Shown: in pieces, positions 38,555-44,324 of the stretch | Numbering within the stretch: the stretch's first letter is position 1 | Layout: the number at the start of each line of letters is the position of its first letter | NCBI RefSeq assembly: GCF_025141175.1 | Contig: NZ_CP081155.1 | Span: forward strand, 897,001 to 961,000 | Reading direction: 5' to 3' | DNA from: Jannaschia sp. M317 | Lineage (GTDB): Bacteria > Pseudomonadota > Alphaproteobacteria > Rhodobacterales > Rhodobacteraceae | Length of the DNA: 64,000 nucleotides | The notes under the pieces: generated by a model | The model's database searches: none | Seen by the model: the letters and a program-made list of their open reading frames with translations, nothing else | Told to the model about the DNA's origin: nothing | Position numbers and translations under genes: made by a program

Positions 38555-39036
38555 AACGTGTCGATTGCGGGCACCGTATAGCCCAGACCGGAACTGATCC
38601 GCGACAGGTCCGCCGCGTTATAGCCGGTGCCGGTCGGCCGTGTTTCACCCGCGTTGTCGTAGGCGATGTTCACCACCACATCGAGATCGTTTGCCAGGCC
38701 CACCGCGTCCGGATCGCTGCCGTCGCCGATCATTCCGTTCATCGCGTTGGAAAAGGCCGCCAGTTCGGCCCGGTCCGTTCCGTCCAGCGCCGCGACACCG
38801 CGCAGCAAGGTCTCGAACCCGGCGACGTCATGGGGCGCATAGCCAAAGCCGGTGCGCAGCCGCACCAGGACCGACGGCGCGTTCATCGCGTCGTTGATGT
38901 CGTTCACGGCTTCTTCGGTGCCGCCCGCCACAAGGGTCATCGTCGCCAGGACAAGCCCCGTTGCCGCAGCCGTCAGCACCACCCAGTCAACGGTTACGGC
39001 ACCGTGCTCGTCTGTCACAAAGGTCGAAATGAACAT
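38551..39036 (-). CDS. Type IVb pilin-like protein, DW-variant motif (copy 3)
   Basis: 161 aa. Residues 12-18 read GAVTVDW after a short leader (MFISTFVTDEH), followed by VVLTAAATGLVLATMTLVAGG. The mature part aligns by eye with the copy at 36739-37269: a MN pair, a TRPTGTGYN segment and LSRISSGLGY at the end. No ribosome site is visible; instead a perfect hairpin ends 4 bases before the ATG. No pilus assembly (tad/cpa) genes are in the window. Function unknown. Confidence 0.72.
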   Translation of the reverse strand: MFISTFVTDEHGAVTVDWVVLTAAATGLVLATMTLVAGGTEEAVNDINDAMNAPSVLVRLRTGFGYAPHDVAGFETLLRGVAALDGTDRAELAAFSNAMNGMIGDGSDPDAVGLANDLDVVVNIAYDNAGETRPTGTGYNAADLSRISSGLGYTVPAIDTF

Positions 39037-39040
39037 GGTA

Positions 39041-39069
39041 GGGACTCAATTTGCTGAAAATTGAGTCCC
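39041..39069 (-). promoter_or_regulatory. Perfect 12-bp hairpin at the start of a pilin-like gene
   Basis: Arms 39041-39052 and 39058-39069 pair perfectly around a 5-base loop. In the minus-strand mRNA the stem ends 4 bases before the start codon, where the ribosome site should be. No T-tract follows, so it is not a standard terminator. A translation-controlling structure is a plausible reading. Confidence 0.55.
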
Positions 39070-39133
39070 AGTAATAGCGGTCTTCAATGGCGGAAATGCG
39101 GCCGGTTCAACGCGAAGCTGGCAACAATAACCC

Positions 39134-39568
39134 CTACCAGTGGCCAGTGTTTCCCATGGAGGCCCAGGGCTCCTGCGGGGGCTTGCTCTCCCCCATCTGC
39201 AGCAGCTCGATCGAGATGTTGTCGGGGCTGCGCACAAAGGCCATGTGCCCGTCGCGCGGCGGCCGGTTGATCGTGATGCCTGCGTCCATCAGCTCCTGGC
39301 ACAGCGCATAGATATCTTCGACCCGATAGGCGATATGGCCAAAATGGCGGCTGTCATTGGGCAGCGCGTCGTCCCCGTCCCAATTGTAGGTCAGCTCCAG
39401 ATCGGCGTGGCCATCTGCCTGGTCCGGGGGGCAGAGGAAAACGTTGGTATAGCGCCCCGCCTCACTTTCGGTGCGGTGACGCTCGATCAGGCCCAGACGT
39501 TTGTAGAACGCCAGCGAGACGTCCAGATCCTTCACGCGGACCATGAGGTGACGATAGCTGATTTTCAT
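39134..39568 (-). CDS. Glyoxalase I-like VOC protein (lactoylglutathione lyase type)
   Basis: 144 aa, two beta-alpha-beta-beta-beta modules. The metal ligand pattern of glyoxalase I is present: His in YRHLMVRVKDLD, Glu in LELTYN, His in FGHIAYRV, Glu in SIELLQ. The Lys/Arg-rich YKRLGL region and N-terminal motif fit lactoylglutathione lyase, which detoxifies methylglyoxal with glutathione. A different VOC substrate cannot be excluded. It is upstream of and co-oriented with the pilin-like gene. Confidence 0.88.
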   Translation of the reverse strand: MKISYRHLMVRVKDLDVSLAFYKRLGLIERHRTESEAGRYTNVFLCPPDQADGHADLELTYNWDGDDALPNDSRHFGHIAYRVEDIYALCQELMDAGITINRPPRDGHMAFVRSPDNISIELLQMGESKPPQEPWASMGNTGHW

Positions 39569-39969
39569 TTCGGGTCTCCGGTTTGCGATGTTGCCCGGAC
39601 CCTATCCCTTGTGTCCGCGGCGGCAACCCCCGGCGAATGGGCCCTCTCGAATCCCCCATGGTCACCGTCGCGACATCGACCCTGATCAACAGGCTTGGGG
39701 CGGCGGATCCTCCAAGGGATGATGCCATCCACCGCCCCCAAGGCTCGGCCCACCAACAGGACCCGTCTGCCTTAGGGGTGCCACCTTGGGCCCAAACGCG
39801 CCCGCGCGCCGCGACCGTCCTGCCGGGGGTGGGGCGCAGCTGCCCGGTCGGGGCTTCGCAGGGGCGGTGCCGTCTTCGGTTCCGACGGCCCAGGTGCCCA
39901 CGACATGTTGCGTCCCCCCGTCCCGGCAAGGCACCATAGGCCCAACCTTCGAATCCCGGAATCCTACTC
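39569..39969. other. 401-base intergenic region, no gene recognised; possible structured RNA
   Basis: No supported reading frame on either strand and no tRNA fold. It contains a near-perfect stem (about 39693-39703 with 39732-39742, one bulged base) and a smaller hairpin GCCGTC/GACGGC (39869-39874 with 39884-39889). It separates the divergent glyoxalase and thyX genes, so it must hold both promoters. An unrecognised small RNA is possible. Confidence 0.35.
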
Positions 39970-40875
39970 ATGCCCCTGACGCCAGAGCAACAAGCCGACA
40001 TCGACGCACAACGCGCGCAGTCCCACACGACCCGCCGCGCCACCGTGCCGGGGATGGAGGCACATCTTTACACGGCGCAAACCGTGCTGGATCACGGCTT
40101 CGTCCGGGTCATCGACTACATGGGCGACGACAGCGCCATCACCCAGGCCGCCCGCGTCAGCTATGGGCGCGGCACCAAGGCGGTCAGCAACGACGAAGGG
40201 CTGATCCGCTACCTGATGCGGCACTGGCATTCGACCCCCTTCGAGATGTGCGAGATCAAGCTGCACGTGAAGCTGCCTGTCTTCGTGGCCCGCCAGTGGA
40301 TTCGCCACCGCACCGCCAACGTCAACGAATACTCCGCCCGCTATTCGATCCTGGATCGGGAGTTTTATATCCCCGCCCTGGACGATCTGGCGGCGCAATC
40401 GACGACCAACAACCAGGGTCGGGGCGAGGCGCTTTCAGGCGAGGAGGCGCAGCGCGTCCTAGACTGGTTACGCGACGACAGCACCCGCGCCTACGACCAC
40501 TACGAGGCGATGATTTCCGACGAAGGGCAACAGGGACTGGCGCGCGAACTGGCCCGCATGAACCTGCCCGCGAATATCTATACGCAATGGTACTGGAAAG
40601 TTGACCTCCACAATCTGTTCCACTTCCTCCGCCTGCGCGCTGACGCCCACGCCCAGATGGAAATCCGAGTCTACGCGGAAAAGATTTGCGAAATCGTTAA
40701 GGACTGGGTCCCCCACGCCTATTCCGCCTTCGAAGACTACCGGTTGGGCGGTGCCCAGCTGTCTGCCCGGGGGGTTGACTGCGTCCGCCGGATGCTGGCT
40801 GGCGAGGAGGTGACGCAGGAGACGAGTGGCATGTCTAAGGGGGAATGGCGGGAGTTTATGGGGTTGGTGGGGTGA
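39970..40875 (+). CDS. thyX: Flavin-dependent thymidylate synthase ThyX
   Basis: Makes dTMP from dUMP using FAD, NADPH and methylene-tetrahydrofolate. 301 aa. The ThyX motif is present as [15 protein letters not shown], with [20 protein letters not shown] before it and [22 protein letters not shown] after. The N-terminal residues before about 30 look like a short extension. The stop codon overlaps the GTG start of a low-GC TIR gene, so the end of thyX marks an insertion boundary. Confidence 0.96.
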
Positions 40876-41663
40876 AGAAGCTATGGATAAGCCATGCATG
40901 GGCTGACAATTCGAACCAGAGCTTCGACTACCTTGTCCAGGAACTCGAAGAGACTGGACTTGAGGTTATATATGATGACGTAGTAATTCCAACCGGCCAG
41001 TCTTTATGGTCGGTAATTGACAATACAATCGTGTGGTCAGATATTGATGGCCTCGCCTTAGTTGTGACAAAAGCGAGCCTCGCCAGTCACGCGGTTCAGC
41101 TCGAGCTAGATATGTTCGTTCGGCGCCTGCTTGCAGATTACCAATTCCCAATATTTGGTATCCTTGCTGAGGGAATTGATTATTCAGAGATTCCGTCGAT
41201 ATTGGCCACAAGGAATTGCGTTAGTCTTGAATCCGATGATTGGCGAGAGAGAATAAAGGCAGGCCTTAGTGGGGAGGCTGCAACTACTAGCAGAGAACGA
41301 GTTCACCCAATATTCTATTCGATTGACCCTCTTGGGGCGGTATGTGAGTTCCATCCAAGAGTTGGGTCCTTGTCTTCATTCTTTGTTGCTTACGATCAAA
41401 ATGAAGTTCGGGGTGGCGGCGCGAGCCTAATCGGTTGGCGCGCACCGTTTTCTGGTCCTCGAGGCAGCGCACCAGTTTCCGCACGTTCTTTTAGGAATGC
41501 GAAACGCATAAACAGAGACGGATGGGTGATTTTCGAAGTTGGAGAGAGTTTGCCGTATGGGCAAAGTGCCTTTTTTGAAATTGCACCAACGTCGACAATT
41601 ATGCGTTTCGGCGGACGGCTCGCGACTGGAGAATTAAAGTATGTTGAAGTCAGAAGGAAATGA
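40872..41663 (+). CDS. TIR-domain protein with an unrecognised C-terminal domain
   Basis: 263 aa from a GTG start overlapping the thyX stop. Residues 1-135 have the TIR layout: [11 protein letters not shown] as strand A with the Ser-His, a [20 protein letters not shown]-loop-like segment, [21 protein letters not shown] with Glu78 where NAD-cleaving TIRs have their catalytic Glu, then [10 protein letters not shown]. From about residue 145 there is a beta-rich domain ([18 protein letters not shown], then [20 protein letters not shown]) that I do not recognise. GC is far below the flanks. Probable defence or signalling effector; function is inferred. Confidence 0.78.
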
Positions 41664-41704
41664 GAATTATTGGTTTAGATCACCCGACGCAAGCGGTTGA
41701 TATT

Positions 41705-42976
41705 CTAAAACCGATCCCTAACCGCCCCCCAAACCATCCCCGCCTGCGCCGCCCAGGGCCCCAACCAGCGCCCTCCAGGCAAGGCTGGCACCGGCAGGCG
41801 TGACAGCACCTCGAACCGCGCCCGCTCGCCCCGCATCGCCTCTACCGCGACCTTCCCGAACAGCGTCGACAGCGCCAGCCCGTGGCCCGAATATCCGCCC
41901 GCCGAGAACACGCCCGGGCGGACTTCTGCCAGGTAGGGCAGGCGCGTGGCCGTCACCGCCAGCGTCCCGCCCCAGGCGTGGGTGAAGCGGACGTCGCGTA
42001 GCTCCGGGTAGACGCATGACAGGTTGCGCCGGACCCGGGCCGCGATGTCGGTGGGGAAGCGTTTGCCGTAGCTTTCGCCCCCGCCGTAGACCAGCCGCCC
42101 GTCCCGCGTCTGCCAGAAATAATTTACCACAAAACGTGAATCCGCCACCGCAGGCATACCCCGTTTTGTATCAAAAGGCGGGTTTTCCAGCGGCTCCGTC
42201 ACCGCGATGAAGTTGTTGATCGGAAGCACCCGCGCCGCCGTCTTGCCCGTCAGATGCGGCGCGTAGCCGTTCGTCGCCTGCAACACGAACCGCGCCCGAA
42301 CCCGCCCGTGGGCCGTCGCCACGGTGTCGCCGATATGGTGCACCTCGGAGGTCTCGTGGATCGAAACGCCTGCGTTTACAGCGGCTTGCGCCAGGCCTAG
42401 CACATAAGCCAACGGGTTGCAGTAGTGCGCCGACGGGTCCAGCACCCCCCCGGCGTAGGCCCTGGTCCCGATACAGGCAGAAACCTCCGCTTGATCAAGC
42501 ACTTGCAGGTCAGTCCCGTAGGTCACGTTCATCCACGCGGCCTTCTTCCGGGCATCCCGCGCCTCGGGCTCCGACAGGCTGACCGACAGGATGCCGGGAC
42601 GCGGATCCGCCAAGGGCGCGTGAGCGGAAATGAGTTTTTGCGTCAAGGACTTGGCCTCTTCCGCCAAGGTCCAGAGCGCTCGCGCATCGGTGCCCAGGTC
42701 GGCCTGGCTCCAGTTGAAACCGGACCCGATCTGACCTCCGTTGCGACCCGAGGCCCCCCAGCCAACGCGCTGTGCCTCCAGCAGCGTGACCGACAGGCCC
42801 GCCTGCGCCGCATGCAGCGCCGCCGAAAGCCCCGTCAGCCCGCCACCAATGACGCAGAGGTCGACGTCGTGATGTCCCTCAAGCCGTGGAAAAGGCGAGG
42901 GAAATGCAACGTCCTCTGCGTACCAGGTCCGGGGCCAGACGCCCCGGTCGCCGTTCGCATGCAGCCAGCTAGACAT
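41705..42976 (-). CDS. puuB: FAD-dependent oxidoreductase, gamma-glutamylputrescine oxidase PuuB-like
   Basis: 423 aa DAO-family flavoenzyme. The FAD loop is VDLCVIGGGLTGLSAALHAA, followed by LLEAQRVGWGASGRNGGQ, the glycine-rich stretch typical of PuuB, and the C-terminal SAGGYSGHGLALSTLFGK. It oxidises gamma-glutamylated amines to the aldehyde with hydrogen peroxide. The start overlaps the stop of the glutamine-synthetase-like gene by 8 bases. Exact substrate not proven. Confidence 0.9.
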   Translation of the reverse strand: MSSWLHANGDRGVWPRTWYAEDVAFPSPFPRLEGHHDVDLCVIGGGLTGLSAALHAAQAGLSVTLLEAQRVGWGASGRNGGQIGSGFNWSQADLGTDARALWTLAEEAKSLTQKLISAHAPLADPRPGILSVSLSEPEARDARKKAAWMNVTYGTDLQVLDQAEVSACIGTRAYAGGVLDPSAHYCNPLAYVLGLAQAAVNAGVSIHETSEVHHIGDTVATAHGRVRARFVLQATNGYAPHLTGKTAARVLPINNFIAVTEPLENPPFDTKRGMPAVADSRFVVNYFWQTRDGRLVYGGGESYGKRFPTDIAARVRRNLSCVYPELRDVRFTHAWGGTLAVTATRLPYLAEVRPGVFSAGGYSGHGLALSTLFGKVAVEAMRGERARFEVLSRLPVPALPGGRWLGPWAAQAGMVWGAVRDRF

Positions 42977-44324
42977 TCAGCAGCAGATGCTCCCGCTCCC
43001 AGGGCGAGATGACCTGCAGGAAAGCACCGTATTCCATGCGTTTGACCGCTGCGTAGACGCGCGCAAAATCGGGGTGCAGCACCTCGTGGATCTCGGTCGC
43101 TTCTTCGAACAGGTCCAGCGCTTCGGACAGGTGCGAGGGGATGCCATCCGCGCTGTTGTAGGCGTCGCCGGTGAACTGCGGGGCGGGGTCTATCTTGTTG
43201 ACAAGACCCAGATATCCGCAGGCGAGCGAGGCCGCGATGCCCAGATAGGGGTTGCAGTCCATGCCCGCGATGCGGTTCTCGATGCGCTTGGCTTCCGGTT
43301 CTGACACCGGTACGCGCAGCCCGGTCGTCCGATTGTCACGCCCCCATTCCAGATTGATCGGCGCGGCGAAGTCGCGAACATAGCGGCGATAGCTGTTCAC
43401 GTAGGGGGCCAGCAGGGCAATAACCGACGGCAGGTGCGTCTGCATCCCGCCGATAAAGTGCATGAATTCATCGGTTTCCGTGCCGTCGCCGCCGTCGAAC
43501 AGGTTTCGGCCCGTGGCACGGTCGACGACCGAATGGTGCATGTGCATGGCCGATCCGGGTTCATCCTGGATGGGCTTGGCCATGAAGGTGGCATAGCAGT
43601 CGTGGCGCAGGGCGGCTTCACGGATCAAGCGTTTGAAATAGAAGATCTCATCGGCCAGCTTGACGGGGTCGCCGTGGCGCATGTTCATCTCTACCTGGCC
43701 GGACCCGCCCTCCTGCAGGATGCCGTCGATCTCCAACCCCATGGCTTCGGCATAGTCGTAGATGTCGTCGATCACGGGGCCGTATTCGTCCACGGCTGAC
43801 ATGGAATAGGCCTGCCGCCCCGCTGCCCGTCTGCCGGACCGGCCCATCGGGGGCTCGACCGGTTTGGATGGATCGGTGTTGCGGGCGACAAGATAGAACT
43901 CCATCTCCGGGGCGACGACCGGCTCCCAACCGCGCGCATGGTAAAGATCGACGACCCTTTTCAAAACGTTGCGCGGAGCGGTGTGGACCGGATCCCCGGC
44001 CTGATCGTGCATGTCGTGGATGACCTGCATGGTCCAGTCAGCCGTCCAGGGCGCGGCGCAGGCGGTTTCGAAATCCGGGGTCAGGATCATGTCCGGCTCA
44101 AGGAAGGCGGTGTCGCCGTCCTCGGCCCAATCGCCGGTGATGGTCTGCTGAAAGATGGAGTTGGGCAGGTAGAACCGGGCCTGTTTGGCGAATTTGGCTG
44201 CGGGCATGGCCTTGCCGCGCGCAATGCCGGACAGGTCGGCCACGATGCATTCAACTTCGTCCAGGCGTCGCCCGTCCAGATAGGCGCGGGCATGGTCCGG
44301 GATCTGTGACAGCCAGTCAGACAT
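42969..44324 (-). CDS. puuA: Glutamine synthetase family ligase, gamma-glutamylputrescine synthetase-like (copy 1)
   Basis: 451 aa. Glutamine-synthetase fold with the ATP-grasp-like active-site segments: APEMEFYLVARNTDP, EGGSGQVEMNMRHGDPV, MAKPIQDEPGSAMHMHHS, and the ENRIAGMDCNPYLGIAASLACGY region; no adenylylation-loop Tyr motif. It probably ligates glutamate to a diamine such as putrescine, the first step of the Puu route. It overlaps puuB and the amidotransferase gene by 8 bases each. Confidence 0.9.
   Translation of the reverse strand: MSDWLSQIPDHARAYLDGRRLDEVECIVADLSGIARGKAMPAAKFAKQARFYLPNSIFQQTITGDWAEDGDTAFLEPDMILTPDFETACAAPWTADWTMQVIHDMHDQAGDPVHTAPRNVLKRVVDLYHARGWEPVVAPEMEFYLVARNTDPSKPVEPPMGRSGRRAAGRQAYSMSAVDEYGPVIDDIYDYAEAMGLEIDGILQEGGSGQVEMNMRHGDPVKLADEIFYFKRLIREAALRHDCYATFMAKPIQDEPGSAMHMHHSVVDRATGRNLFDGGDGTETDEFMHFIGGMQTHLPSVIALLAPYVNSYRRYVRDFAAPINLEWGRDNRTTGLRVPVSEPEAKRIENRIAGMDCNPYLGIAASLACGYLGLVNKIDPAPQFTGDAYNSADGIPSHLSEALDLFEEATEIHEVLHPDFARVYAAVKRMEYGAFLQVISPWEREHLLLNV

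What the first reader, a model, noticed from the sequence alone, without database searches (positions are those of the whole stretch)
40872..41663. Low-GC TIR-domain gene inserted on the thyX stop codon, with an unrecognised C-terminal domain
The sequence shows a sharp fall in GC that begins at the thyX stop and ends at the puuB stop, enclosing one gene. The N-terminal half has a TIR layout with a candidate catalytic Glu78 after a Ser-His. The C-terminal 120 residues are beta-rich and match no domain I know. TIR proteins in bacteria are often NAD-cleaving or signal-producing defence effectors. A lone TIR gene without a visible sensor partner suggests either that the C-terminal domain is the sensor or that this is a single-gene system.
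Basis: partly seen in the sequence, partly recalled or inferred. Interest (0 to 1): 0.75.

Follow-up and report, generated by a model that had tools for sequence, protein, structure and literature searches.

The report
Swappable defence genes behind thyX
A one-off TIR gene behind the housekeeping gene thyX in a marine bacterium turns out to be one filling of a slot that most related species fill with a different foreign-looking, often defence-like gene, whose start often lies in the tail of the housekeeping gene itself.

Summary
The low-GC TIR gene is real (40872-41663; GC 0.48 between thyX 0.63 and puuB 0.67; TIR_2 above cut-off; E78 aligned with E77 of a SPARTA TIR chain). Its C-terminal domain is an orphan: no other relative found in 5.8 billion proteins.

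The larger finding is the site. The window is Jannaschia (Rhodobacteraceae). In 62 of 86 thyX loci GC falls behind the thyX stop; 44 of 86 carry a same-strand low-GC ORF starting within 60 nt, against 2 of 327 control gene ends. Fifty such cargo proteins form 37 clusters: TIR, CAP12-TIR, reverse transcriptase, AAA, HSDR_N, HEPN, others. In 21 of 50 the cargo start overlaps the thyX stop by 4 nt; the G-rich thyX tail offers a Shine-Dalgarno-like run and the start codon. parE (22 of 30) and odhB (11 of 30) are further slots. A GTAG-type REP motif follows 15 of 50 thyX cargo (1 of 184 control gaps).

Best reading: core-gene tails act as expression slots for exchangeable single genes, many defence-like, swapped mainly by homologous recombination through the core gene. 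Slot, coupling geometry and turnover are shown; expression, defence function and recombination route are inferred.

The parts
39970..40875 (+). thyX, the slot's host gene (flavin-dependent thymidylate synthase)
   Evidence: Pfam Thy1 PF02511 E 1.2e-55; found in 20 of 20 Jannaschia genomes
40839..40875 (+). thyX tail: G-rich, C-poor last codons with a GGGG run at 40860-40863 (8 nt before the GTG) that could serve as ribosome binding site for the cargo; includes the thyX stop TGA 40873-40875
   Evidence: tail codon usage differs from the rest of thyX over 96 aligned genes; motif TGGCGGGAGTTT in 42 of 62 loci with a GC drop and 7 of 24 without
40872..41663 (+). cargo gene: TIR protein, 263 aa, GTG start overlapping the thyX stop by 4 nt (alternative start ATG 40845)
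40887..41249 (+). TIR domain, residues 6-126
41103..41105 (+). codon of candidate catalytic Glu78
   Evidence: alignment with E77 of 8fex; invariant in 5 aligned TIR proteins
41304..41660 (+). C-terminal domain, residues 145-263, orphan
   Evidence: no other protein at E <= 10 in the word-based search of 5.8 billion, no PDB sequence at E <= 10, no Pfam match
41705..42976 (-). puuB-like FAD-dependent oxidoreductase, right flank, convergent
   Evidence: Pfam DAO PF01266 E 1.1e-62; a homologue lies within about 2.5 kb of thyX in 16 of 20 Jannaschia genomes (coordinates)

Best explanation
The TIR gene is the current occupant of an expression slot at the 3' end of thyX. The last codons of thyX offer a ribosome binding site and a start codon that overlaps the stop, so a gene body placed directly behind thyX should be transcribed from the thyX promoter and translated by coupling. 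Across Rhodobacteraceae, and most clearly in Jannaschia, this slot is filled by low-GC genes, usually one at a time, of many unrelated families, many of them defence-like; other slots of the same build lie at parE and odhB. Shown: position, strand bias, start overlap, tail sequence, diversity, turnover between species. Inferred: cargo is exchanged mainly by homologous recombination through the core gene, the tail travelling with the cargo; the cargo is expressed with the core gene; the TIR protein hydrolyses or converts NAD through Glu78 when its orphan C-terminal domain senses infection.
For: GC drop of at least 0.08 behind thyX in 62 of 86 loci (18 of 20 Jannaschia, ours included) against 27 of 327 control gene ends; coupled low-GC same-strand ORF (start <= +60) in 44 of 86 against 2 of 327. 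Over 80 named loci (78 long enough), 50% drop by more than 0.10 in the first 200 nt; 0-4% in every 200-nt bin outside 0..+1400. Of 54 cargo ORFs 50 lie on the thyX strand; 30 of those 50 starts overlap the stop, 21 by exactly 4 nt. parE: 26 of 30 drop, 22 of 30 coupled ORF (start -25..+60), 15 overlapping; odhB: 16, 11 and 2 of 30. 50 same-strand cargo in 37 clusters. Slot fidelity: of 95 cargo ORFs, 22 related pairs lie within one slot (1836 possible) and 1 across slots (2629 possible) (not corrected for kinship). A second TIR family (L020 in Jannaschia, L174 in another genus, 45% identical) sits behind thyX in both. Starting from the cargo: 2 of 8 CAP12-TIR genes in 290 genomes lie behind thyX; one of the two looks like the genome already seen as L065. 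Limimaricola pair L099/L109: last 600 nt of thyX 95% identical, right flank 89%, different cargo, similarity ending inside the thyX tail.
Against: No expression, coupling or phage data. Right flanks differ: puuB was not found within 1.5 kb in the 10 other-genus loci checked, so double crossover does not explain transfer between genera. Sequence support for recombination in thyX is weak: pairs sharing a cargo family have slightly more similar thyX 3' ends than expected (mean percentile 0.67, n = 15). REP motifs at cargo ends hint at another mechanism. Four of 54 thyX cargo ORFs lie on the other strand; 8 of 62 loci with a drop have no qualifying ORF (one of them, L012, has a 173-aa same-strand ORF that my longest-ORF rule passed over). 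At parE 4 loci and at odhB 3 loci list a low-GC ORF on the other strand. At most 8 of 37 parE and odhB cargo match a Pfam family and 1 a PADLOC model at E <= 1e-6, so defence is not shown for them. The loci are not a random sample.
Confidence: 0.66

Rival explanations
1. A dedicated cassette mechanism fills the slots: cargo genes bounded on the right by GTAG-type REP palindromes are moved by a REP-associated tyrosine transposase or another recombinase acting in trans, with the core-gene tail as left boundary.
For: REP motif within 200 nt of the cargo stop in 15 of 50 thyX cargo, against 1 of 184 intergenic gaps; 7 of 22 at parE and 3 of 11 at odhB. REP copies are few (4, 15 and 17 hits in 3 genomes), yet some lie behind low-GC genes at thyX, parE, pncB, odhB and lepA. 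At odhB two Jannaschia have the REP 14 and 8 nt behind the stop with no cargo. A REP-associated transposase ORF spans one REP pair. A second copy of the lepA tail precedes one cargo.
Against: 35 of 50 thyX cargo, the window's own included, lack the motif. In the window's own genome only 2 of about 9 REP sites stand behind a low-GC gene, and the other odhB loci without a GC drop have no REP there (2 of 14 do). No copy of the thyX tail repeats behind the cargo. Cargo families stay with their slot. REPs may simply be 3' end elements. The motif was written after seeing these ends.
Confidence: 0.2
2. Ordinary mobile elements (prophages, islands, transposons) have entered behind thyX many times and decayed, leaving single cargo genes.
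For: Low GC and patchy distribution; ORFs that look like insertion-sequence transposases stand near the slot in L014/L038 and L011 (read by eye).
Against: No integrase or phage family among the 25 Pfam families shown (of 36) for 57 cargo proteins; narrow insert size (median cargo ORF 270 aa), start overlap and strand bias are not expected from decay. Flanking genes were not scanned for integrases.
Confidence: 0.09
3. The TIR gene is simply a lone single-gene defence system that landed here by chance.
For: TIR domain with the candidate catalytic Glu, no partner gene beside it.
Against: Seventeen of 19 other Jannaschia genomes show a GC drop at the same place, 14 with another low-GC same-strand ORF.
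Confidence: 0.05

Closest known systems
[quoted passage not shown] passages seen, abstract included)
   Same: Variable genes beside fixed core genes, no integrase among the cargo families seen, high turnover.
   Different: Here usually one gene, on the strand of the left core gene, start codon often in that gene's tail, the same host gene used across a family, and the right flank not shared between the genera checked.
Core defense hotspots cDHS1/2 of Pseudomonas aeruginosa (PMC10250203; passages seen) and E. coli defence hotspots (PMC10121019; passages seen)
   Same: Fixed flanks, defence content; cDHS1 is not tied to one group of mobile elements.
   Different: cDHS1 is 1-224 kb, median 26 kb; here the median cargo ORF is 270 aa and the start overlaps the host gene's end.
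Integron gene cassettes (recalled)
   Same: Promoterless single genes of unknown or defence function expressed from a fixed upstream site.
   Different: Usually one cargo gene rather than an array; the host site is a coding gene. No attC search was made.
TIR effectors of SPARTA / CBASS / Thoeris
   Same: TIR domain and candidate catalytic Glu; PDB sequence matches include SPARTA TIR-APAZ chains.
   Different: No such partner gene beside it and an orphan C-terminal domain.
GTAG-type REPs and RAYT transposases (PMC3733652; passages seen, abstract included)
   Same: GTAG end, head-to-head pairs, a RAYT ORF at one pair.
   Different: Few copies in the three genomes searched and enriched at ends of cargo genes.

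Membership tests
TIR-domain NAD-processing effector | TIR domain by sequence profile | tested here: met
   TIR_2 34.5 bits, cut-off 28
TIR-domain NAD-processing effector | catalytic glutamate | tested here: met
   E78 aligns with E77 of 8fex and is invariant in A3; that E77 is catalytic is recalled
TIR-domain NAD-processing effector | NAD hydrolysis or conversion | not testable with these tools
   needs an enzyme assay
SPARTA (short pAgo with TIR-APAZ) | APAZ domain and neighbouring short Argonaute gene | tested here: not met
   PDB matches end at residue 126; C-terminal part has no Pfam match; neighbours are thyX and puuB
CBASS TIR-SAVED | SAVED domain and CD-NTase partner beside it | tested here: not met
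   the PADLOC SAVED5 match covers residues 3-116 only, the TIR part; neighbours are thyX and puuB
Thoeris | ThsA partner next to the TIR gene | tested here: not met
   neighbours are thyX and puuB; ThsB match weak, E 9e-4. A distant ThsA was not searched for
hotspot exchanged by recombination at flanking core genes | different accessory genes beside the same core genes | tested here: met
   puuB homologue within about 2.5 kb in 16 of 20 Jannaschia genomes (coordinates)
hotspot exchanged by recombination at flanking core genes | no mobility genes in the hotspot | tested here: inconclusive
   none among the 25 Pfam families shown of 36; transposase-like ORFs by eye in L014/L038 and L011; a RAYT ORF near lepA in L220; flanking genes not scanned
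hotspot exchanged by recombination at flanking core genes | raised recombination in the flanking core gene | tested here: inconclusive
   mean percentile 0.67, n = 15 pairs
integron cassette | integrase and attC sites | not tested
   no attC profile search and no integrase search of the genomes was run
element inserted at an attachment site in the core gene tail | direct repeat of the tail on the far side of the insert | tested here: not met
   longest shared words no longer than control, 7.9 against 8.7 nt, in 72 loci; one exception elsewhere: a lepA tail copy in L220

The most novel reading that the evidence does not exclude
Rhodobacteraceae keep a set of core-gene tails (thyX, parE, odhB, probably pncB and lepA) as docking and expression sites for a dedicated single-gene cassette system, with the core tail as left boundary giving ribosome binding site and start codon, a GTAG-type REP pair as right boundary, and a RAYT-like or other single-strand recombinase moving them: an integron-like immune exchange without an integron integrase.
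Probability: 0.18. Interest if true: 0.93.

Novelty: new variant of a known kind. Interest (0 to 1): 0.78.

Why it matters
The tails of a few housekeeping genes can be used as an address list for undescribed genes, many of them probably defence genes: read what stands behind thyX, parE and odhB in any Rhodobacteraceae genome. At most 8 of 37 parE and odhB cargo match a Pfam family. It also offers a testable case of how promoterless genes get expression on arrival, through a start codon overlapping the host gene's stop, and of how small genes are exchanged without visible mobile elements in a family known for gene transfer agents (recalled).

Tried and rejected

C-terminal relatives: none by whole-protein search, region search, genome contigs and viral contigs, or tblastn at E under 1 over all loci then held, apart from our own copies.

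Attachment-site idea: no duplicated thyX tail behind the cargo. A GTTRRRY-like look of some tails was considered by eye and dropped because the bases vary. Rfam: nothing in 39000-43000 at E <= 0.1.

That cargo families live only at thyX: rejected. DUF6161 has 3 matches in 295 genomes, 1 behind thyX; CAP12-TIR 2 of 8; TIR_2 1 of the 30 loci checked, out of 68 genomes with matches. Of the L174 family, 290 genomes held only L174 itself and one hit over the TIR part alone.

Beyond the family: 4 of 29 alphaproteobacterial thyX loci meet the 0.08 drop in 300 nt, 3 of 29 drop by more than 0.10 in 200 nt, so the slot looks family-specific.

Biases: the 80 named loci are the best 80 of at least 587 by similarity to this thyX. 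Four duplicate loci were dropped and ten skipped for short flank or low thyX GC before the 86 were counted. Cargo thresholds were set by me. 57 of 71 low-GC ORFs went into the family scans, and 37 of 40 from parE and odhB. The REP pattern was written after seeing cargo ends, though a plain 9-mer count put the same sequence first. Control gene ends are long ORFs picked by rule, not annotated genes. The names parE, pncB, odhB, lepA and puuB are mine: Pfam shows a gyrase-B-type topoisomerase, NAPRTase, 2-oxoacid dehydrogenase E2 and an FAD oxidoreductase; lepA is by eye.

The statement that this is not in print rests on paper searches in open-licence PMC only. PMC8224337, found by one of them, names thyX only as a phage auxiliary gene (passage seen).

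Full report

The site. The window belongs to the genus Jannaschia: four genomes that the panel calls same genus have thyX contigs of the same lengths as named Jannaschia contigs. None of the 19 other Jannaschia genomes has this TIR gene. Yet their thyX ends are not empty: 18 of 20 Jannaschia genomes, ours included, show a GC drop there, and 15 of 20 have a qualifying low-GC ORF on the thyX strand, each in a different cluster. I extended this to 80 named Rhodobacteraceae loci. After removing four duplicates and skipping ten loci with a short flank or AT-rich thyX, 86 loci were examined: 62 drop by at least 0.08 GC in the first 300 nt; 54 of these have a low-GC ORF starting within 150 nt, 50 of them on the thyX strand; 30 of those 50 starts overlap the thyX stop and 21 overlap it by exactly four bases. 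Over the named loci no 200-nt bin from -4000 to +4000, other than those from 0 to +1400, drops by more than 0.10 in more than 4% of loci. Among 327 other gene ends in the same loci 27 show a drop and 2 have a coupled low-GC ORF (start -20 to +60), against 44 of 86 at thyX. In 29 alphaproteobacterial thyX loci outside the family 4 meet the same drop.

The tail. The last codons of thyX are unlike the rest of the gene: Gly GGG 0.67 against 0.29, Phe TTT 0.74 against 0.25, Leu TTG 0.61 against 0.10 (96 genes). Loci with a GC drop have fewer C in the last 36 nt (2.9 against 5.8) and carry TGGCGGGAGTTT more often (42 of 62 against 7 of 24, p 0.0016, not corrected for kinship). In many of the 4-nt overlap cases a GGGG run stands 7-8 nt before a GTG that shares two bases with the thyX TGA. 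I read this as a ribosome binding site and start codon carried by the host gene; that ribosomes use it is inference.

The cargo. The 50 same-strand cargo proteins fall into 37 clusters; 11 clusters have two or three members, in the named cases from different genera. In 57 of the 71 low-GC ORFs, Pfam finds CAP12/Pycsar TIR (3), DUF6161 (3), AAA_15 (2), AAA_21 (2), DUF6338 (2), TIR_2 (2), HSDR_N (2), RiboL-PSP HEPN (2), and single cases of BglII, DUF3644, MT-A70, reverse transcriptase, ion channel and DUF4062, among others (25 of 36 families shown). NCBIfam matches at E <= 1e-5 include Drt3b/Drt4, Cap12, PtuA and a retron effector (cut-offs not checked). A few loci carry two cargo genes (for example L094, L095, L107). 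A second TIR family with its own C-terminal part (L020 in Jannaschia, L174 in another genus, 45% identical) stands behind thyX in both genera, in L174 with the GTGA overlap.

More slots. Following GTAG-type palindromes that end some inserts, I found the same build at other core genes: in the window's own genome parE followed by an AAA ATPase gene and pncB followed by a 534-aa gene; in G004 parE, odhB and lepA. Tested over 30 genomes each (20 Jannaschia and 10 others): parE 26 drops, 22 coupled ORFs, 15 overlapping starts; odhB 16 drops, 11 coupled ORFs, 2 overlapping starts. Four parE and three odhB loci list a low-GC ORF on the other strand. The parE tail has GGRGGAGYTGGATG in 25 of 30 loci, a ribosome-site-like run with an ATG a few bases before the stop. 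Of 95 cargo ORFs, 22 related pairs lie within one slot and 1 crosses slots (parE in our genome and thyX in G018). At most 8 of 37 parE and odhB cargo match a Pfam family; AbiTii, AbiU2 and HEPN appear.

Right ends. 15 of 50 thyX cargo have a GTAG-REP motif within 200 nt behind the stop, against 1 of 184 intergenic gaps in the flanks. The motif was written after seeing these ends, but a plain 9-mer count ranks the same sequence first. Similar at parE (7 of 22) and odhB (3 of 11). At odhB our own genome has the REP 14 nt behind the stop and no cargo, and G009 8 nt; the other 12 odhB loci without a drop have none. In our genome only 2 of about 9 REP sites stand behind a low-GC gene. One REP pair lies within a RAYT-like ORF of which 87 residues match the model. 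The window's own TIR gene has no such motif.

How it works. Shown: fixed place, strand bias, overlapping start, variable content. Inferred: transcription and translation from the host gene. For exchange, slot fidelity, similarity ending inside the thyX tail in a close pair with different cargo, a puuB homologue within about 2.5 kb in 16 of 20 Jannaschia and absence of attachment repeats favour recombination through the core gene, the mechanism that Oliveira and colleagues propose for hotspots without mobile elements (PMC5635113, passages seen). The direct test is weak: pairs sharing a cargo family have slightly more similar thyX 3' ends than expected (mean percentile 0.67, n = 15). Between genera the right flank is not shared, and the REP association leaves room for a dedicated mechanism.

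Known or new. Defence hotspots at core genes are known; in P. aeruginosa cDHS1 has a median of 26 kb. My ten paper searches of the open PMC library found no account of thyX, parE or odhB as such slots; subscription papers and preprints were not searched. I rate this a new variant of a known kind, with an unproved chance of something categorically new.

Noticed in passing
L217 (own genome, C1:2861500-2866500): parE is followed by a 426-aa low-GC AAA ATPase gene overlapping its stop and then a REP pair; its relative (phmmer E 1e-94) is the thyX cargo of G018 (L005).
   Followed up: yes
L218 (own genome, C1:1282500-1288500): pncB is followed after 38 nt by a 534-aa low-GC gene without Pfam match, with a REP pair 6 nt behind its stop.
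   Followed up: partly
L220 (G004, C41:127500-133000): A second copy of roughly the last 100 nt of lepA precedes an AAA_15/AAA_21 cargo gene, as if a cassette brought its own lepA tail; a RAYT-like ORF with a REP pair inside it lies beyond.
   Followed up: partly
L070, L081, L111 and L009 behind thyX: The thyX tails of three named genera end in codons for NDPA, and L009 in NPA; in L081 and L111 a palindrome-like stretch, seen by eye, lies between the stop and the cargo.
   Followed up: no
L054, L059, L090, L091, L111 behind the thyX cargo: A second class of GC-rich hairpin repeat (GGGCAGCGCCCG type) follows several cargo: its pattern is in 6 of 49 ends against 27 of 4572 background chunks.
   Followed up: no
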